From: Dictyoglomota bacterium
GTDB lineage: Bacteria; Dictyoglomota; Dictyoglomia; Dictyoglomales; Dictyoglomaceae
Assembly (NCBI GenBank): GCA_029776735.1
Contig: JAKOUL010000087.1
Coordinates: 1-10,784 of the forward strand
Direction: 5' to 3'
DNA: 10,784 nucleotides
Shown here: in pieces, positions 2,011-9,320 of the stretch
Layout of the letters: each line of letters starts with the position of its first letter
Position numbering within the stretch: position 1 is the first letter of the stretch
Position numbers and translations under genes: made by a program
Notes under the pieces: model-generated
What the model saw: the letters and a program-made list of their open reading frames with translations, nothing else
What the model was told of the DNA's origin: nothing
Database searches by the model: none

Positions 2011-2085
2011 TGGCTCCTCGGGCAGGATTCGAACCTGCAACCCGCCGGTTAACAGCCGGCCGCTCTACCGTTGAGCTACCGAGGA
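2011..2085 (-). tRNA. tRNA-Asn (anticodon GTT)
   Basis: Reading the minus strand from 2085, a full 75-nt cloverleaf can be drawn. The acceptor stem TCCTCGG pairs with CCGAGGA, the D stem is GCTC/GAGC with a short 7-nt loop, the anticodon stem is GCCGG/CCGGC around loop CTGTTAA (anticodon GTT), the variable loop has 5 nt, and the T stem is GCAGG/CCTGC with loop TTCGAAT. The discriminator is G and the 3' CCA is encoded in the gene. All stems pair perfectly, as expected for a thermophile. It stands alone, with its own promoter upstream. Confidence 0.97.
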
Positions 2086-2277: not shown

Positions 2278-3618
2278 ATGGCAAAGCTTGTTTTTCCTAA
2301 AGATTTTTTATGGGGTACAGCTACAGCATCTTATCAGATAGAAGGAGCCGCTTATGAAGATGGTAAAGGAGAGAGTATATGGGATAGGTTTTCTCATACG
2401 CCTGGCACCATATATCAAAATCAAACAGGGGATGTAGCTTCTGATCATTACCACCATTGGGAAGAGGATGTAGAGTTAATGTCCTTTATGGGTCTTAAAA
2501 GTTATAGATTTTCTATTTCATGGCCAAGGATCTTTCCAGAAGGGAAAGGGTCTGTTAACCCTAAAGGAGTTGCTTTTTATGAAAATCTTGTAGAAGCACT
2601 GCTTTCAAAGGGAATAAAACCTGCTATTACGTTATATCACTGGGATCTACCTCAGGCTTTGGAGGATAAAGGAGGTTGGCTAAATAGGGATACATCTAAA
2701 TACTTTGCAGAGTATGCTAATTTTATGTTTGATAAATTTGGAGATAGGGTTCCCATCTGGATTACTTTGAATGAACCATGGGTAAATGCATTTATAGGAT
2801 ATGCTTTTGGAGCTCATGCTCCAGGGAAAAGAGATATGAAAGGGGCTTTTATTGCTTCTCATAATTTTCTTCTTGCCCATGGACTTGCAGTTCAATCTTA
2901 TAGGCAGAAGAATTATAAAGGAGAGATTGGAATTACTCTGAACTTTTCTCCTGTTTATCCTGCTACAGAAAAAGAAGAAGATCTAAAAGCAGCAAGGCTT
3001 CAAGATGCTTTTTCTAATAGACTGTTTTTGGATCCTATATTCTTCAGAAAATATCCTGAAGAACTCTGGAGAATTTTAGAAAGAAGCTACTGGAGTTTTA
3101 AACCTGAGCCTGAAGATTTTGATATTATTAGTAGACCAATAGATTTTATAGGGATAAATTACTATACAAGAACTATTGTACAGGCAGATCCAGAGAATAA
3201 AATATTTGGAATTAAAGAAATAAAAGGTCCTGGAGAATTTACAGATATGGATTGGGAGATATATCCAGATGGACTATATGATCTTTTAATACGACTGTAT
3301 AGAGATTATGAAGTACCTCTTTATATTACTGAAAATGGAGCTGCATTCAGTGATGTAGTAGAAGATGGGAAAATTAGAGATAAAAAGAGAATTGATTATT
3401 TAAGAGAACATTTTAAAAGAGCCTATTATGCCATAAGAGATGGCGTAGATCTTAGAGGTTATTTTATATGGACTCTTATGGATAATTTTGAATGGAGTAA
3501 TGGATTTAGTAAGAGATTTGGGCTAATATATGTAGATTATTCAGATCAAAAAAGGATTTTAAAAGATAGTGCATATTTCTATAAAGAAGTTATTGCAAAT
3601 AATGGTTTAGAAGAATAA
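2278..3618 (+). CDS. bglA: Beta-glucosidase, glycoside hydrolase family 1
   Basis: A complete 446-residue GH1 enzyme of standard length, a single (beta/alpha)8 barrel. FPKDFLWGTATASYQIEGA (6-24) is the N-terminal family signature with Q20 as a glycone-binding residue; YHWDLP (120-125) holds H121; TLNEP (163-167) carries the acid/base E166; YITENG (349-354) carries the nucleophile E352; and W399 with EWSNGF (405-410) completes the sugar-binding subsite. It would release glucose, and often galactose, from the non-reducing end of cello- and other beta-oligosaccharides by a retaining mechanism. There is no signal peptide, so it works in the cytoplasm on imported sugars. The ATG has a strong AGGAGG (2265-2270) 7 nt upstream. 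It is a single-gene unit ended by the hairpin at 3627-3689. The symbol is the generic one for this family; the preferred substrate cannot be read from sequence. Confidence 0.96.
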   Translation: MAKLVFPKDFLWGTATASYQIEGAAYEDGKGESIWDRFSHTPGTIYQNQTGDVASDHYHHWEEDVELMSFMGLKSYRFSISWPRIFPEGKGSVNPKGVAFYENLVEALLSKGIKPAITLYHWDLPQALEDKGGWLNRDTSKYFAEYANFMFDKFGDRVPIWITLNEPWVNAFIGYAFGAHAPGKRDMKGAFIASHNFLLAHGLAVQSYRQKNYKGEIGITLNFSPVYPATEKEEDLKAARLQDAFSNRLFLDPIFFRKYPEELWRILERSYWSFKPEPEDFDIISRPIDFIGINYYTRTIVQADPENKIFGIKEIKGPGEFTDMDWEIYPDGLYDLLIRLYRDYEVPLYITENGAAFSDVVEDGKIRDKKRIDYLREHFKRAYYAIRDGVDLRGYFIWTLMDNFEWSNGFSKRFGLIYVDYSDQKRILKDSAYFYKEVIANNGLEE

Positions 3619-3626
3619 TGACTTTG

Positions 3627-3689
3627 AAAAGTCCCTCCTTAATATTTTAGAAGAGACAAAGTTGTCTTGAATTGAAGGAGGGACTTTTT
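3627..3689. terminator. Strong bidirectional terminator overlapping the end of the radical SAM gene
   Basis: A perfect 14-bp stem (3627-3640 with 3675-3688) is extended by three more pairs across a one-base bulge, with an inner AGACA/TGTCT hairpin (3654-3658, 3663-3667) in the loop. The right arm ends in TTTTT (plus direction, for the GH1 gene) and the left arm in AAAA, read as TTTT on the minus strand. The stop codon of the opposing gene (3647-3649) falls in the loop, so the final 13 codons (365-377) of the radical SAM gene form the loop and one stem arm. Confidence 0.88.
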
Positions 3690-4780
3690 CCATTTATGAG
3701 GATAAAATCTTTACATCTTTCGGAGTTTATACCTAATTTTTTAAGATCTTTTAGATCTTTTATGCTATTTTCCTCTCTTACTTTTAAAATCTTCTTAGCA
3801 CTTTGAGGACCTATTCCAGGAATTCTCAGAAGTTCTAAGTAAGGCGCTTTATTTATCTCTATTGGGAAGAAATCAGGATGGTTTTTAGCCCATACCATTT
3901 TAGGGTCTTCATTTAAAGGAAGATTTCCATTTTCAAATACAAATTCTTCTATAGAAAAAGCGTATCTTCTTATTAAAAAGTCTGCTTGATATAGTCTAAC
4001 CTCTCTCCAAGTAGAAGTGGGAGAGAGATCTTCTAAAGGAGTTTTAGGGATTGGCTGGAAGGCACTAAAGTATGCCCTACCGAGCTGATACTCTTTATAA
4101 AGTTTAGAAGTTAAAGAAAGGATCTCTGTATCCTTTTCTTGAGAGGCTCCTACAACAAATTGAGTGGTTATTCCAGCTTTAGGTCTTATTCCTTTTTGAA
4201 GGAGTTTTTTTAAAACTTCCATCTTTTTAAATAAAAGGGAGAAATTTTTTTCAGGAGCTATTTTCTTTAGATATTCTTCTCCTGGGGCTTCAAGGTTTAT
4301 AGATACCCTATCGGCATATTTTATTGCAGTTTCTATATAATCTTCTGATGATTCTGGAAGGATTTTTAAATGTATATAACCTTTAAAGTTATACCTTTCC
4401 CTTAATATCTCTGCAACTTTTAGCATCTCTTCCATGGTATTTTTAGGAGATTTTGTTACTGCAGAGCTCAAGAATAATCCATCTACAAGATTTTTCCTTT
4501 TAAGTTCTAAAAAGAGTTTTACTAATTCATCAGCGCTAAAACTTATCCTTTGGAAAGGACGATTAGCTCTATTGGCACAGTAGTAGCAGTTATGAATACA
4601 ATCATTAGAGAGTAGTATTTTTAAAAGTCTCACGGTTTTTCCATTGGGAAGAGTTGTAGGATAAATCCATCCCTTTAATGTGGGAGTTCTTTTTACTGCT
4701 TCAGGAGAACATAAGAAGGACCCACATAGATCAAATTTTGCAGACTCTGCAAGAATCTCTAACTTATCACTTACGTACAA
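3647..4780 (-). CDS. Radical SAM protein with C-terminal helix-hairpin-helix domain (putative DNA modification/repair)
   Basis: A 377-residue protein. The cluster motif C-x3-C-x2-C (C61, C65, C68; CIHNCYYC) binds a 4Fe-4S cluster that cleaves S-adenosylmethionine. The barrel follows, with GLFLSSAV (101-108), GYIHLKILP (134-142) and RVSINLEAPG (158-167). A helix-hairpin-helix at about 313-333 (LELLRIPGIGPQSAKKIL) suggests DNA or nucleic-acid binding. The layout fits the radical SAM family annotated as putative DNA modification/repair proteins, often found beside a uracil-DNA-glycosylase-like gene; no such partner is in this window. The reaction is unknown. Two extra N-terminal cysteines (C19, C24) might bind a second metal site, which is inference. 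The start is TTG at 4780: an in-frame stop lies 15-18 nt upstream, the site GAGAGGGG (4786-4793) is 5 nt away, and the next Met is residue 116. It has its own promoter. Confidence 0.85.
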   Translation of the reverse strand: MYVSDKLEILAESAKFDLCGSFLCSPEAVKRTPTLKGWIYPTTLPNGKTVRLLKILLSNDCIHNCYYCANRANRPFQRISFSADELVKLFLELKRKNLVDGLFLSSAVTKSPKNTMEEMLKVAEILRERYNFKGYIHLKILPESSEDYIETAIKYADRVSINLEAPGEEYLKKIAPEKNFSLLFKKMEVLKKLLQKGIRPKAGITTQFVVGASQEKDTEILSLTSKLYKEYQLGRAYFSAFQPIPKTPLEDLSPTSTWREVRLYQADFLIRRYAFSIEEFVFENGNLPLNEDPKMVWAKNHPDFFPIEINKAPYLELLRIPGIGPQSAKKILKVREENSIKDLKDLKKLGINSERCKDFILINGKSPSFNSRQLCLF

Positions 4781-4811
4781 GCTTTCCCCTCTCGTTTAAG
4801 TTCTGTTTAAT

Positions 4812-4840
4812 ATTATATCACTATGAGTCCTTCTTGAAAA
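4812..4840 (-). promoter_or_regulatory. Promoter for the radical SAM gene
   Basis: On the minus strand TTTTCA (4835-4840, 4/6) and a perfect TATAAT (4812-4817) are 17 nt apart. The transcript would start near 4805, about 25 nt before the TTG start codon. It lies just downstream of the small basic ORF. Confidence 0.65.
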
Positions 4841-4849
4841 GCAAAAATT

Positions 4850-4957
4850 TTAGATTTTCTTTGATTCTTTAATCTGTAGCTTGATACGCTCTTTTTTTCT
4901 CTTTTCTCTCGCCTTTTTTCTTTTCCTTTTTTGGATTGCTTTCCACTGTTTTCCCAT
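4850..4957 (-). CDS. Small, extremely basic 35-residue protein (hypothetical)
   Basis: An ATG at 4955-4957 opens 35 codons ending in TAA 4850-4852. The protein begins MGKQWKAIQKRKRKK and ends LQIKESKKI. It has 13 Lys and 5 Arg against 3 Glu, a net charge near +15, no Cys or Pro, and a single Trp (W5); the pattern suggests one long helix. The start has a good Shine-Dalgarno, GAGGTG (4963-4968), 5 nt upstream, and a TATAAT lies at 4999-5004, so initiation and transcription signals are both in place. It fills most of the gap between the DivIC-like gene and the radical SAM gene. By composition alone it resembles tiny ribosome-associated or RNA-binding proteins; I do not recognise a family and make no homology claim. 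The alternative is a chance frame in A-rich sequence, but the ribosome site argues against that. Confidence 0.68.
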   Translation of the reverse strand: MGKQWKAIQKRKRKKAREKRKKERIKLQIKESKKI

Positions 4958-4998
4958 TTTTCCACCTCTTTACTACCTATTTTTGTTTGATAGGAAAT

Positions 4999-5004
4999 AT
5001 TATA
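4999..5004 (-). promoter_or_regulatory. Candidate -10 box for the small basic ORF
   Basis: A perfect TATAAT on the minus strand lies 42 nt upstream of the small ORF's ATG and just past the DivIC-like stop codon. No convincing -35 is seen at 16-18 nt; that position falls in the T/A-rich last codons of the DivIC-like gene. The leader would start near 4992. Confidence 0.45.
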
Positions 5005-5012
5005 TCAAAGAC

Positions 5013-5369
5013 CTATTTTTTAAAAAGATTTATAACCTTTTTAATTAAATCATCTTTGTTTTTTCCTTTTTCCTCAATTATTAAAAGTGGTTCTTCCCCT
5101 GGTCTTACCATAAAAAGTTTTTCTCTGGCAAGTTTCTCAATGATGTAGGGGTCATCCATATTATAGGCGATCTCTCTTAATGCCTTTACATCTTTTTGGA
5201 GAGCTTGTTCTCTTTTTATTAGTGCTTCTACTTTTTTTGAGTATTCTATGTAATCTCTTACTCCATGATATATAGAAGGGCTGAGGTATAGTATAAAAAG
5301 TATAAAGACTAAAAGGAAGAGATTTTTATTTTTCTTCTTTCCCTTTTTAGATTGTTCTTGCCACTCCAC
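5013..5369 (-). CDS. Septum formation initiator (DivIC/FtsB-like cell division protein)
   Basis: A 118-residue bitopic membrane protein. A short Lys-rich cytoplasmic tail (1-16) precedes one transmembrane helix (about 17-34, LFLLVFILFILYLSPSIY), a coiled-coil segment (about 40-70), and the family's ending, DPYIIEKLAREKLFMVRPGE (73-92). This order matches the DivIC/FtsB family, whose members form a complex with FtsL and FtsQ/DivIB at the division site. Whether to call it DivIC, FtsB or FtsL-like cannot be settled without its partners. The start is GTG at 5369: GAGGAG (5379-5384) is 9 nt upstream and there is no nearby ATG. The first 23 nt overlap the end of the pyruvate kinase gene, so translation is probably coupled. 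No separate promoter is evident. Confidence 0.85.
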   Translation of the reverse strand: MEWQEQSKKGKKKNKNLFLLVFILFILYLSPSIYHGVRDYIEYSKKVEALIKREQALQKDVKALREIAYNMDDPYIIEKLAREKLFMVRPGEEPLLIIEEKGKNKDDLIKKVINLFKK

Positions 5370-7092
5370 GATATATTACTCCTCTTTCAGGATCTATAGT
5401 TAGGATCTCTCCTTGAGCTAATTTATTCTGCAAGTCTTTTGCTCCTACTATTATACTAAGTCCTTTACTTCTCCATGGTATAAGAGAGGGAGGAAGTTTT
5501 TCATCTTCTATAATTAATCCTTGAATCTTGTCAAGAAGAGGTTCTAATTCAGGGCTAAAAGAAGGTATCAGAAGAATATCGCCTTCATCCACTTTACTTA
5601 TAGCCTCTTTTACATTTTTAGCAATAGTTACTTTTGCAGTTTTTGGATCTCCACCAAGTCCATGTCCTTTCCCTACCATCTCGCTAACCACATGTACTTT
5701 TATAAGATTAGTCATGCCTGATATTCCCATAGGAATGCCAGCAGTTATAACTACTACATCCCCTCTTTTCACATATTCCCTTTGAAGGAGGAGTCTTGTG
5801 GATTTATCAAACATTTCATCAGTAGTATAAAAAACCTCGGTAAGAAGAGGAACTACTCCCCAACTTAGATTCAGTCTCCTTCTTATTTCAGGGAAAGGGG
5901 TAAGGGCAAATATAGTAGAAGAAGGTCTATACTTTGAAGTCTGTCTTGCAGTAAAGCCACTATGGGTTGCTGTAATGATAGCTGAAGCTTTTATCTCTTT
6001 TGCAATTTGACAAGTAGAAAAAGTAATAGCTTGAGTAATATTTTCTTTAGAATCTGATTCTTTTAGAAATTCTTCAAAAGGAAAATTCTCTTCTACTTTT
6101 CTTGCAATTTTGTCCATCATTTTTACACTCTCTATGGGATATTTTCCCGCAGCAGTCTCATTGGAAAGCATAACTGCGTCGGTACCATCAAGTATAGCAT
6201 TTGCTACATCACTTACTTCTGCACGAGTAGGGGTAGGATTATCTACCATAGAGATAAGCATTTGAGTAGCAGTAATTACAGGTTTTCCTGCTATTCTTGT
6301 CTCTTTTATGATCCTTTTCTGAATAAGAGGAACCTCTTCATTGGACATTTCTACAGCAAGGTCACCTCTTGCTACCATAATGCCATCTGCCACTTCAAGA
6401 ATCTCGTTGAAGTTATTTACTGCTTCTCTCTTCTCAATTTTTGCGATAACAGGAATTCTTGCATCATAAAGTTCTAAAAATTCTTTTAGCTCTAAGACAT
6501 CAGAAGCCCTTTGTATAAAAGATAGGGCGATAAAATCTATCTTCTTCTCAATTCCAAAAAGAACATCTTTTTTATCTTTTTCAGTAAGTGGAGATACTTT
6601 CAAAGTGGAGTCTGGAAAGTTCACTCCCTTATGGTTTGAAAGACAACCTCCATGAATAATGCCACATATTAATTTATCATCTTTTTTATCAATAACTTTA
6701 AGTTCAATGGCTCCATCATCAATAAGGATCCTTTCTCCCACATTAATATTCTCCAGAAGGTAAGGGTAATTTATAAAGAGAAGCTTTTCATTTCCAAGAG
6801 TTTCTTTAGGGGTAAGAGCTATCTCTTCGCCATCTTTGAGATAAATTTTGTTATTTTCTACTTCTCCAACTCTAATTTTAGGACCCTGAAGATCTTGAAT
6901 GATAGCAATAGGTTTATCTAATTCCTCAGAAAATTTTCTTATTAATTTTATTTTTTCTCCATGTTCATTGTAATCTCCATGAGAGAAATTGAGCCTTGCT
7001 GCATCCATTCCTGCAATAATTAAATTCTTAAGCATATCTTCACTTTCACTAACAGGACCTATGGTACATACGATTTTTGTCTTTCTAAACAA
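5347..7092 (-). CDS. pyk: Pyruvate kinase with extra C-terminal domain
   Basis: The 581-residue enzyme converts phosphoenolpyruvate and ADP to pyruvate and ATP, the last step of glycolysis. The barrel opens with TKIVCTIGP (5-13) and RLNFSHG (33-39); IIQDLQGPKIR (64-74) leads into the B domain (about 75-171). The active site has IAKIEKREA (216-224) with K218 and metal ligand E220, MVARGDLAVE (239-248) with D244, and TATQML (274-279). SNETAAGKYPIE (310-321) and an allosteric C domain (about 350-472) follow. The extra 105 or so residues correspond to the PEP-utiliser mobile domain found on some Firmicute pyruvate kinases, but its usual L-T-S-H-A motif reads LPPSL (533-537), so the transfer histidine is gone. 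The start is TTG, with AAGGAG (7099-7104) 6 nt upstream and no upstream ATG. The gene overlaps the DivIC-like gene downstream and has its own promoter. Confidence 0.96.
   Translation of the reverse strand: MFRKTKIVCTIGPVSESEDMLKNLIIAGMDAARLNFSHGDYNEHGEKIKLIRKFSEELDKPIAIIQDLQGPKIRVGEVENNKIYLKDGEEIALTPKETLGNEKLLFINYPYLLENINVGERILIDDGAIELKVIDKKDDKLICGIIHGGCLSNHKGVNFPDSTLKVSPLTEKDKKDVLFGIEKKIDFIALSFIQRASDVLELKEFLELYDARIPVIAKIEKREAVNNFNEILEVADGIMVARGDLAVEMSNEEVPLIQKRIIKETRIAGKPVITATQMLISMVDNPTPTRAEVSDVANAILDGTDAVMLSNETAAGKYPIESVKMMDKIARKVEENFPFEEFLKESDSKENITQAITFSTCQIAKEIKASAIITATHSGFTARQTSKYRPSSTIFALTPFPEIRRRLNLSWGVVPLLTEVFYTTDEMFDKSTRLLLQREYVKRGDVVVITAGIPMGISGMTNLIKVHVVSEMVGKGHGLGGDPKTAKVTIAKNVKEAISKVDEGDILLIPSFSPELEPLLDKIQGLIIEDEKLPPSLIPWRSKGLSIIVGAKDLQNKLAQGEILTIDPERGVIYRGVARTI
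5379..5384 (-). promoter_or_regulatory. Ribosome binding site for the DivIC-like gene, inside pyk
   Basis: GAGGAG on the minus strand lies within the last codons of pyk, 9 nt before the GTG. It supports the GTG as the start in the absence of an ATG. Confidence 0.7.
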
Positions 7093-7098
7093 ATTTTT

Positions 7099-7104
7099 CT
7101 CCTT
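7099..7104 (-). promoter_or_regulatory. Ribosome binding site fixing the TTG start of pyk
   Basis: AAGGAG on the minus strand is 6 nt before TTG 7092-7090. The protein from this codon begins MFRKTKIVCTIGP, matching the usual N-terminus of pyruvate kinases, which confirms the choice. Confidence 0.8.
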
Positions 7105-7118
7105 CCTTGAATTGTTTA

Positions 7119-7147
7119 ATTATATATATTCCCCTTTTAAATCTTAA
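7119..7147 (-). promoter_or_regulatory. Candidate promoter for pyk
   Basis: On the minus strand TTAAGA (7142-7147, 4/6) and a perfect TATAAT (7119-7124) are 17 nt apart, in the 84-nt gap between the DUF401 gene and pyk. The start would be near 7112. I see no strong terminator in the gap, so read-through from the transporter genes is also likely. Confidence 0.6.
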
Positions 7148-7176
7148 CCATTATTTTATCACAAAATTTTAAAGGA

Positions 7177-8421
7177 TTAGCTTAAAAAGAATTTTAAAAA
7201 GAGAAATATTACAAATACAATACCGCTTTTTATTACATAAGAATAAAGTTTATTCCAATCTGCCTTGTAATATTCTTTTGTAATAATTAAGCAAAGGTGC
7301 ATGGGAGACATAAGTACTCCAAAATAACCACTAATAAAGGCAAATATGATATATTTTAATGGATTTTGGTAAGGAATCATTCTAATAAGTATTGGGAAAG
7401 ATATTCCTACTGAAGCTTGTGTTGATCCGGTAAGAAGTCCTGTTATAAAAGGTAGCGTAAAGAAACTTATGACGATAGGTATATTAGAGTAATTTAGGAG
7501 GTAAGCTATATCAGATACTGCACTGGTAACCTCTAACATTCTTTTAAAGATCATAACAGCGACGATGAGAAGTACGTTTTCAGGCTTTAAAGCATCTTTT
7601 AGGGTATTTTTAATATCCTGAAAATTGTATCTGAATATTAAAAATAATACTAAGATTAGTCCTAAAAGTACATATAGAAGATCTACATGAAAGATTAGAG
7701 TTATTAGTAAAAGTGCAAGTATAGGTGAGAATGATATTAAGAAGGTTTTTAATGGATTTTTATTTTCTTCTACGGGAGTTTCATCTGTATCCGGAGCTTC
7801 TTCTGAATTTTCTTCTGGAGCTTTTTCCGAGAGGTCTAATTTATAAAAGGCAAAAAATAGTCCTATAGCAAGAACAAGGAGTCCATAAGGGAGAGCTTCT
7901 CTTATCAAAATAGAGAGGCTTGTCTCGCTCAAAACAGAAGCAAGTAAAATTCCTGGGTAAACAGGAAGAAATGGTTCCCAGACATGTCTGAACCAGTAAT
8001 TTATATAACTTTTTCTTTCTGGATCAAGATTTGTATCTTTACCTGCTTCTTCTAAAAGAGGAGCAGAAAATAGAGCTCCTCCTACCGATGGTAGAAGTCC
8101 CATAATCATAGGCATAGAGATAAGAAGAAGTCTTTTTTCCTTAATAAGGGATTTGATGGAAAGTATCATGTTTTTTAAGAGATCTTTGTTCCTTAGAATA
8201 TTTTCAAGAACTGCAATTAAATATAATATTAATGCTAATTTAATAGTATCCCATGCTATAGCTCCTTCAAAAACTCCCTTCAATATATCAGAGAAAGGAA
8301 GTCCAAAACTTAGTCCCATAATGATGCTTCCACCTAAGAGTGCCCATACTAATGGAAATTTTTTACTAATAAGGACTGCTATAATACCAAAGATGATGCA
8401 TACTTTTAATAAAGCAATCAT
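7177..8421 (-). CDS. DUF401 family membrane protein (probable ion or organic-acid transporter)
   Basis: A 414-residue hydrophobic protein with about ten or more membrane segments. GLLPSVGGALFSAPLLEEAG (108-127), FITGLLTGSTQASVGISFP (325-343) and FGVLMSPMHLC (367-377) match the pair of Gly/Ser/Pro-rich re-entrant-like loops of the DUF401 family, which belongs to the wider ion/anion transporter grouping. No substrate is established for the family. A central loop (about 198-222) is unusually acidic (DLSEKAPEENSEEAPDTDE) and should be cytoplasmic, dividing the protein into two halves. I place the start at ATG 8421, not at the in-frame TTG at 8439: GGAGGT (8428-8433) is 6 nt before the ATG, and starting at the TTG would put that site inside the coding sequence. 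The ATG overlaps the stop of the upstream AEC gene as ATGA, so translation is coupled. Confidence 0.85.
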   Translation of the reverse strand: MIALLKVCIIFGIIAVLISKKFPLVWALLGGSIIMGLSFGLPFSDILKGVFEGAIAWDTIKLALILYLIAVLENILRNKDLLKNMILSIKSLIKEKRLLLISMPMIMGLLPSVGGALFSAPLLEEAGKDTNLDPERKSYINYWFRHVWEPFLPVYPGILLASVLSETSLSILIREALPYGLLVLAIGLFFAFYKLDLSEKAPEENSEEAPDTDETPVEENKNPLKTFLISFSPILALLLITLIFHVDLLYVLLGLILVLFLIFRYNFQDIKNTLKDALKPENVLLIVAVMIFKRMLEVTSAVSDIAYLLNYSNIPIVISFFTLPFITGLLTGSTQASVGISFPILIRMIPYQNPLKYIIFAFISGYFGVLMSPMHLCLIITKEYYKADWNKLYSYVIKSGIVFVIFLFLKFFLS

Positions 8422-9320
8422 TTTATTACCTCCATCCAAAGATTTAATGTGATTAAGGATAAAAGAGTAGAATAGGCTATTACATGAGAAGAGAATGGAT
8501 AATCCAGTTTGAACTGGATAGCAAGCACTAAAGCGGTAAGCATGGAAGGCATAGCAGACTCTAAGACCGTTACATTAAAAGGAATTCCAGAAAGATTAAA
8601 CAGATTGGAAAATAGAAGAGCAAATAAAGGAAAAACCAAAAGCTTTAAAATAACCCCAATACTTACTGGAAGATATGTCTCTTTACTTTCTGGCTTTTCC
8701 AAGGATAATCCCAAAAGAAACATCATAAGAGGAGTAGTAGCTTTTGCTAATATGGAGAAACTTTCTAATAGGAAATCAGGAATTTTTATAGGTTGTAAAA
8801 CAAGACCTGCTATTAAGCCCCAGAGAGGTGGGTTTACTAATATTTTTTTAAGGGAATTTTCAGCCCCAAATTCTTTTTGAGATGTAAAAAAATTAATAAC
8901 TGCAATACCTATAGTATAAACAAATATAATCATTCCCAACTGATCATAAATAATTGCAAAGCTAAGTCCTTCACTTCCATATAATCTTTCCATAATAGGA
9001 TATCCTAAAAAGGTGACATTTCCACCTATAGTGACTAAGAATAGACTTGCAATGGTTTCTTTTTTCAGTTTTAAGAGTACACCTATAAGTATAGAGAGTG
9101 CTCCTACAAGAAAACTTGTAATCCATTCTACTATTGCAACCTTTAAAAATGCTCCTTGAGGGGGATTTGAGTATATAGAGAAAAAGACTAAAGCAGGAAG
9201 AGAAAAATTATAGACGAATTTTGAAAAGGTTTCTGTATCATGTTGCTTAAAGATTTGAAATGTTCTTGAAAGAAAGCCTAAAAAACTAATTATTATTAAC
9301 GTAATTAAGGTTTTTATCAT
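8418..9320 (-). CDS. AEC family transporter (auxin efflux carrier-like permease)
   Basis: A 300-residue integral membrane protein of normal length for the AEC family, with about ten membrane helices in two repeated halves. Typical landmarks are NFSLPALVFFSI (38-49), GGNVTFLGYPIM (99-110), NPPLWGLIAGLVL (163-175), ATTPLMMFLLGLSL (194-207) and LESAMPSMLTALVLA (253-267). The paired Asn/Pro-containing broken helices are where this family binds substrate. Bacterial members move small carboxylates such as malate or malonate, or other anionic metabolites, but the substrate cannot be told here. The start is ATG 9320; an in-frame stop lies shortly upstream and no other start codon intervenes. GGAGG (9333-9337) is 12 nt away, a longer spacing than usual. 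The first 35 nt overlap the MFS gene and the last 4 overlap the DUF401 gene, so the three are probably translated together. Confidence 0.9.
   Translation of the reverse strand: MIKTLITLIIISFLGFLSRTFQIFKQHDTETFSKFVYNFSLPALVFFSIYSNPPQGAFLKVAIVEWITSFLVGALSILIGVLLKLKKETIASLFLVTIGGNVTFLGYPIMERLYGSEGLSFAIIYDQLGMIIFVYTIGIAVINFFTSQKEFGAENSLKKILVNPPLWGLIAGLVLQPIKIPDFLLESFSILAKATTPLMMFLLGLSLEKPESKETYLPVSIGVILKLLVFPLFALLFSNLFNLSGIPFNVTVLESAMPSMLTALVLAIQFKLDYPFSSHVIAYSTLLSLITLNLWMEVIK
8428..8433 (-). promoter_or_regulatory. Ribosome binding site deciding the DUF401 start
   Basis: GGAGGT on the minus strand, 6 nt before ATG 8421-8419, lies inside the last codons of the AEC gene. It supports the 414-residue protein rather than a 420-residue version beginning at TTG 8439. 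Confidence 0.85.

What the first reader, a model, noticed from the sequence alone, without database searches (positions are those of the whole stretch)
4850..4957. A 35-residue, +15 charged small protein gene hidden between divIC-like and radical SAM genes
The sequence shows ATG, stop, a GAGGTG ribosome site at proper spacing and a TATAAT upstream. Half of the residues are Lys or Arg, and the peptide should be a single helix. Its size falls below normal gene-calling cutoffs, so it is probably unannotated. Composition recalls tiny ribosomal or RNA-binding proteins such as bTHX or eL41, but only composition supports that. Since neighbours include a division gene and a nucleic-acid radical SAM gene, a role in ribosome or nucleoid function is a guess.
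Basis: partly seen in the sequence, partly recalled or inferred. Interest (0 to 1): 0.72.

Follow-up and report, generated by a model that had tools for sequence, protein, structure and literature searches.

The report
Possible tiny basic Dictyoglomus gene
A heat-loving bacterium seems to carry a 35-residue, strongly positively charged protein gene with its own start signals, but the DNA's make-up explains most of the charge, at least some gene predictions read the stretch in another frame, and no relative could be checked, so it remains an unproven candidate.

Summary
The ORF is as described: minus strand 4957-4850, 35 aa, 18 Lys/Arg, net +15, GAGGTG five bases before the ATG, TGATATAAT ending 41 bases before it. 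The window is Dictyoglomus-like; neighbours are FtsB/DivIC and a TIGR03916 radical SAM gene. Start signals beat chance locally: ORF plus 6-base SD in 0.58% of shuffles, extended -10 in 0.3%. The charge does not: the strand is 80% purine and about 11% of open shuffles match it, though few (0.3%) have so few helix breakers. Against: codon usage unlike the neighbours (18 of 2926 segments as low), and a database prediction in an overlapping frame on 9 contigs. No family matched; on a bS22 profile it scores like its shuffles. Orthologues, the decisive test, were out of reach: no Dictyoglomota DNA could be fetched, and the large protein search refuses 35 aa. Best reading: more likely than not a small gene for a basic single-helix peptide, perhaps binding rRNA as bS22/eL41 do. 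Moderate to low confidence.

The parts
4850..4957 (-). 35-aa candidate gene, ATG to TAA, K/R 18 of 35, net +15
   Evidence: an ATG ORF of at least 35 aa with an SD of at least 6 bases in 0.58% of 5000 shuffles of the 232-nt gap
4963..4968 (-). Shine-Dalgarno GAGGTG, 5 bases before the ATG
   Evidence: the only GAGGTG-N3-9-ATG in the window; 0.23 expected, 45 of 200 shuffles of the whole window have one or more
4999..5007 (-). extended -10 element TGATATAAT before the small ORF; no -35 in the scan goes with it
   Evidence: 0.3% of shuffles of the 55-nt gap hold it
4812..4840 (-). promoter-like TTTTCA-17-TATAAT with TG extension, between the small ORF and the radical SAM gene
   Evidence: extended -10 in 0.02% of shuffles of the 69-nt gap
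4813..4965 (-). rival 50-aa ORF in the overlapping frame, GTG start inside the GAGGTG; a frame predicted in public data
   Evidence: only a weak AGGT nine bases before its GTG
5013..5369 (-). FtsB/DivIC-type septum protein gene, GTG start overlapping the end of pyk
   Evidence: PF04977, E 1.5e-12
3647..4780 (-). radical SAM plus helix-hairpin-helix protein, TIGR03916 (rSAM_link_UDG), TTG start
5347..7092 (-). pyruvate kinase upstream of ftsB

Best explanation
The stretch most likely holds a small gene of its own. RNA polymerase starting at TGATATAAT (5007-4999) makes a short leader, ribosomes load at GAGGTG and translate 35 codons, and the product is one straight, strongly basic alpha-helix without a hydrophobic face. 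Such a helix would lie in a groove of structured RNA. Ribosomal RNA is the likeliest target, with the peptide acting as a structural filler in the manner of bS22/mS38 or eL41, which sit at helix 44 and the subunit interface. Shown: the ORF, its signals and their local rarity by chance, and the predicted helix. Inferred: transcription, translation, RNA binding, and the ribosome as partner.
For: ORF with a 6-base SD in 0.58% of 5000 shuffles of the gap. Extended -10 in 0.3% of shuffles of the upstream gap, and a second one after the ORF in 0.02% of shuffles of that gap, which fits a separate unit. Given base content, only 0.3% of 11615 open shuffles have so few helix-breaking residues, 2 of 34 against a mean of 7.6. 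Predicted helix 3-34 at mean pLDDT 95.2, against 72.8 for the rival frame. The RNA of the gap is not unusually structured, z -0.22. Precedent: Borrelia bS22 was unannotated, has a GUG start, is 61% K/R, and binds a pocket of h2, h27, h44 and h45 (PMC10618245 section 8).
Against: Codon usage is unlike the nine neighbouring genes (one of them partial): adaptation index 0.527 against 0.65-0.73, 18 of 2926 gene segments as low, GC3 0.38 against 0.19-0.26, ATC in 3 of 4 Ile. K/R content and charge are ordinary for so purine-rich a strand (12% and 11% of open shuffles). No homologue was found, and no DNA of a close relative could be read. A predicted protein in public data uses the other frame, and that frame also models as one long helix, 2-44, at lower confidence. 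No terminator-like site lies between the ORF and the next gene, and the two-hexamer promoter scan finds fewer sites than shuffles do, 6 against 10.3. No amphipathic pattern (82% of permutations reach the moment). The helix-breaker and local-gap tests were chosen after seeing the sequence.
Confidence: 0.37

Rival explanations
1. Chance ORF: the gap is a purine-rich spacer and 5' leader with two tandem promoters for the radical SAM gene, and no peptide of consequence is made.
For: Codon usage does not look like the genes around it. 80% purine explains the charge, and all three frames are basic. A 35-codon ATG ORF alone arises in 6.4% of shuffles. No terminator-like site separates the ORF from the radical SAM gene. 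TATAAT as such is no more frequent in the window than expected, 22 against 20.5.
Against: A correctly spaced 6-base SD on the only ATG ORF found in the gap (0.58%), and few helix breakers (0.3%).
Confidence: 0.3
2. Regulatory leader peptide: the ORF is translated for the act of translation, its run of Lys/Arg (and runs of A) slowing the ribosome and so tuning expression of the radical SAM gene 69 bases downstream.
For: Same strand, 69-nt gap, no terminator-like site between; nine AAA and four AAG codons and runs of A.
Against: The radical SAM gene has its own promoter-like site and SD after the ORF, and the RNA shows no unusual structure for a switch.
Confidence: 0.12
3. Basic DNA- or nucleoid-binding peptide, or another RNA-binding role, rather than a ribosomal one.
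For: Charge and helix suit any polyanion; the next gene is a putative DNA modification/repair enzyme. In one of 13 radical SAM loci of other lineages (L007) a 24-aa basic ORF with a TTG start ends 95 bases before the gene on the same strand.
Against: That L007 ORF lies antisense to a DivIC-type gene and is probably a by-product. In the other 12 loci my scan (22-60 aa, K/R at least 38%, net at least +8) found no such ORF right before the gene; L010 has only 63 and L001 660 bases upstream of the match.
Confidence: 0.13
4. The real gene is the overlapping 50-aa frame (GTG at 4965, stop at 4813).
For: It is a frame present in the protein database, one sequence on 9 contigs; codon index slightly higher than that of the 35-aa frame, 0.591 against 0.527 over the same stretch.
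Against: Its start lies in the SD of the other frame, with only a weak AGGT nine bases before it. It runs into the promoter-like site of the next gene. The database search gave no relative, only itself (1 of 1 candidates), although FtsB relatives are there. Weaker helix model.
Confidence: 0.08

Closest known systems
bS22 (COX24_C, PF08213; mitochondrial mS38/AURKAIP1)
   Same: About 30-35 aa in bacteria, half or more Lys/Arg, helical, unannotated in Borrelia
   Different: No KKM-x-KHK-(H/Y)-like core and no histidine at all; profile score 11.0 against a mean of 11.9 for its own shuffles and 61.8 for a true member
eL41 (PF05162)
   Same: A single basic helix, 24 aa in the structure described (PMC10618245 section 8)
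   Different: No Pfam match; eukaryotic cytosolic protein in that paper
bTHX (PF17070)
   Same: Tiny basic thermophile ribosomal protein; starts with MGK (bTHX sequence recalled, from no call)
   Different: No Pfam match of the peptide

Membership tests
bS22 / COX24_C | match to PF08213 or to a bS22 profile above its own shuffles | tested here: not met
   No Pfam match at E up to 10, while the control L018 protein matched at 1.9e-8. Own profile from 16 distinct sequences: 1178 of 2000 shuffles score at least as high
bS22 / COX24_C | bound in the pocket of 16S h2/h27/h44/h45 | not testable with these tools
   needs ribosome mass spectrometry or cryo-EM
bS22 / COX24_C | size about 30-35 aa, K/R about half or more, helical | tested here: met
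   35 aa, 51% K/R, predicted helix 3-34
bTHX | match to PF17070 | tested here: not met
   no Pfam match; the model itself works, it rang in Thermus composti and in 1 of 8 handled genomes
eL41 | match to PF05162 | tested here: inconclusive
   no Pfam match, but the model rang in none of the 14 control genomes, so no positive control
protein-coding gene | codon usage like neighbouring genes | tested here: not met
protein-coding gene | start signals beyond chance | tested here: met
   local shuffles; the SD-ATG pattern alone is not rare over the whole window
protein-coding gene | conserved frame in relatives | not testable with these tools
   no Dictyoglomota DNA reached; protein search minimum is 40 aa

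The most novel reading that the evidence does not exclude
Dictyoglomota have their own, independently evolved single-helix ribosomal protein that fills the place of bS22/eL41 without sequence kinship, encoded by a free-standing 35-codon gene that gene prediction reads in the wrong frame.
Probability: 0.13. Interest if true: 0.6.

Novelty: new variant of a known kind. Interest (0 to 1): 0.35.

Why it matters
If translated, it would be a further case of a tiny basic protein hidden by annotation, here with a database prediction in the wrong frame. If ribosomal, it would support the idea that the rRNA pocket of bS22/eL41 is filled by unrelated basic helices in different lineages, now in a thermophile phylum of its own.

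Tried and rejected
bS22 membership was tested by Pfam and by a profile of 16 distinct bS22 sequences and rejected by sequence (composition correction was switched off, which is why shuffles were the yardstick). Structured RNA or terminator in the gap: fold z -0.22, no Rfam hit there, no terminator-like site in the gap. Synteny outside Dictyoglomus: 13 radical SAM loci. By eye in the lists of ORFs of 70 aa or more, none has an FtsB-like gene upstream on the same strand; the DivIC model was run on 8 of the 13 genomes, and L007 is the one locus where I know a DivIC hit to lie beside the radical SAM gene, divergently. The same scan found three short basic ORFs (L005, L006, L007); the L007 one (24 aa, TTG) ends 95 bases before the radical SAM gene on its strand but is antisense to that DivIC gene. 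L010 has 63 and L001 660 bases upstream of the match. Dictyoglomus DNA: three viral contig scans found no relative. Hoping for stray Dictyoglomus contigs in MAGs, I searched 398, 147, 400 and 1 genomes of four phyla with the FtsB protein (at E 1e-8, at E 1e-12): two matches, 39% and 33% identity, no Dictyoglomus. P0001 in 8 genomes: nothing at E up to 10, without a positive control. A fold search with a lone helix was not made, since it would match everything. The PADLOC library was not searched.

Full report
Observation. The minus strand of 4957-4850 reads ATG to TAA as MGKQWKAIQKRKRKKAREKRKKERIKLQIKESKKI. Eighteen of 35 residues are Lys or Arg, three are acidic, net +15. GAGGTG stands five bases before the ATG, and TGATATAAT, an extended -10 element, lies at 5007-4999, ending 41 bases before the ATG. 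The gap to the upstream gene is 55 bases and to the downstream gene 69 bases.

Where it is. Of 14 FtsB relatives of the window's copy, four carry an organism name, all Dictyoglomus sp. or Dictyoglomaceae bacterium, so the window is from Dictyoglomus or a close relative. Upstream on the same strand are pyruvate kinase and FtsB/DivIC (PF04977). Downstream is a radical SAM protein with a helix-hairpin-helix end that passes the cut-off of TIGR03916, a putative DNA modification/repair protein.

Chance. In 5000 dinucleotide shuffles of the 232-base gap, 6.4% hold an ATG ORF of 35 aa or more, 1.8% also an SD of 5 bases, and 0.58% one of 6 bases. The extended -10 occurs in 0.3% of shuffles of the upstream gap; the second copy, before the radical SAM gene, occurs in 0.02% of shuffles of its gap. 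Over the whole window TGNTATAAT occurs 4 times against 0.83 expected, with 2 of 200 shuffles reaching that. Plain TATAAT is not enriched, and the two-hexamer scan of 3600-7150 gives fewer sites than shuffles, 6 against 10.3. One GAGGTG-N3-9-ATG per window is not rare by itself, 45 of 200 shuffles.

Composition. The strand is 80% purine, so every frame is basic: +15, +11 and +7. Among 11615 open shuffles (of 40000) of the ORF body, the observed K/R count is reached in 12% and the charge in 11%, so charge alone is weak evidence. Only 0.3% have as few Gly, Pro, Asn, Ser, Thr, Asp, Tyr or Cys (2 of 34; mean 7.6). This test was chosen after the sequence was seen. AlphaFold2 from the single sequence gives one helix, 3-34, mean pLDDT 95.2. 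The rival frame also gives one helix, 2-44, at mean pLDDT 72.8, so the helix as such does not separate the frames; only the confidence differs. The helix of the 35-aa frame has no hydrophobic face.

Against. Relative to 3232 codons of nine neighbouring genes (one partial) the codon adaptation index is 0.527, against 0.65-0.73 per gene. Only 18 of 2926 sliding 34-codon segments of these genes are as low, and GC3 is 0.38 against 0.19-0.26. This is either the mark of a non-coding stretch or the usage of a highly expressed class of gene (ATC 3 of 4 Ile, more AAG); no Dictyoglomus ribosomal gene was at hand to tell.

The rival frame. A 50-aa ORF, GTG 4965 to 4813, overlaps in another frame. It is in the protein database as one sequence on 9 contigs, differing only in how the first residue is written, and the search returned no relative of it (1 of 1 candidates was itself), although FtsB relatives at 75-57% identity are present (FtsB itself is on 15 contigs). 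Gene prediction therefore placed a gene here at least on those contigs, in a frame whose start sits in the SD of the 35-aa ORF. Whether the 35-aa frame is in the same database could not be asked, since the tool does not take queries under 40 aa.

Families. The peptide matched nothing in Pfam, NCBIfam or PHROGs, and in the PDB only a splicing factor chain at E 6.8. As a control, the bS22 of a genome whose record is titled Nitrospirae (L008, G007; locus L018) matched PF08213 at 1.9e-8 and solved bS22 chains. PF08213 rang in 69 of 100 genomes of that phylum. A profile was built from 31 loci (the 30 best of 70 places, and L018), 16 distinct sequences. On it the peptide scores 11.0 bits, its 2000 shuffles on average 11.9 (1178 at least as high), and the C. 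acnes chain 61.8. It is thus not a bS22 by sequence. It could still work like one: PMC10618245 (section 8 read whole; other passages) describes Borrelia bS22 as unannotated, GUG-started and 61% K/R, lying in an rRNA pocket, calls eL41 and mS38 its analogues, and expects the protein in other bacteria. PMC6582356 (passages seen) treats eL41 and mS38 as possible convergence and bS22 and mS38 as of common origin.

Limits. No whole genome is held for the window. The one genome-contig scan gave 13 loci, at best 50% identical. Searches of 946 genomes in four phyla for a stray Dictyoglomus contig failed. Literature searches for Dictyoglomus with small protein (6 papers, 5 listed), with ribosome profiling (0) and with ribosomal protein plus unannotated (0) gave nothing on this gene as far as titles and abstract starts show; PMC5167688, the D. 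turgidum genome paper, was seen in passages only and says genes were called with Prodigal.

Verdict. More likely a gene than not, by a modest margin, with a role as a basic helix on RNA, most plausibly rRNA. Only the alignment of relatives, or protein evidence, can settle it.

Noticed in passing
3647-4780 (-): The TIGR03916 (rSAM_link_UDG) radical SAM gene has an opposite-strand beta-glucosidase as its next gene here; in L005 and L010 the next gene on its strand looks alike in both (by eye), perhaps the usual partner. Whether a partner lies elsewhere in this genome is unknown.
   Followed up: partly
L007 1634-3275: In a MAG titled only 'bacterium' a DivIC-type gene lies directly beside the radical SAM gene, divergently, with a 24-aa basic ORF (1828-1902) antisense to it.
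   Followed up: no
7177-9320 (-): A DUF401/TIGR00529 membrane protein gene overlaps an AEC-type transporter gene, by 22 bases from its TTG as listed or by 4 from the ATG at 8421, which has the better GGAGGT.
   Followed up: no
2011-2085 (-): tRNA-Asn (GTT) gene.
   Followed up: no
795-816: Two overlapping opposite copies of GGAGG(A/G)GCATATATG, a palindrome-like stretch between the mannosidase-type gene and the GH130 gene.
   Followed up: no
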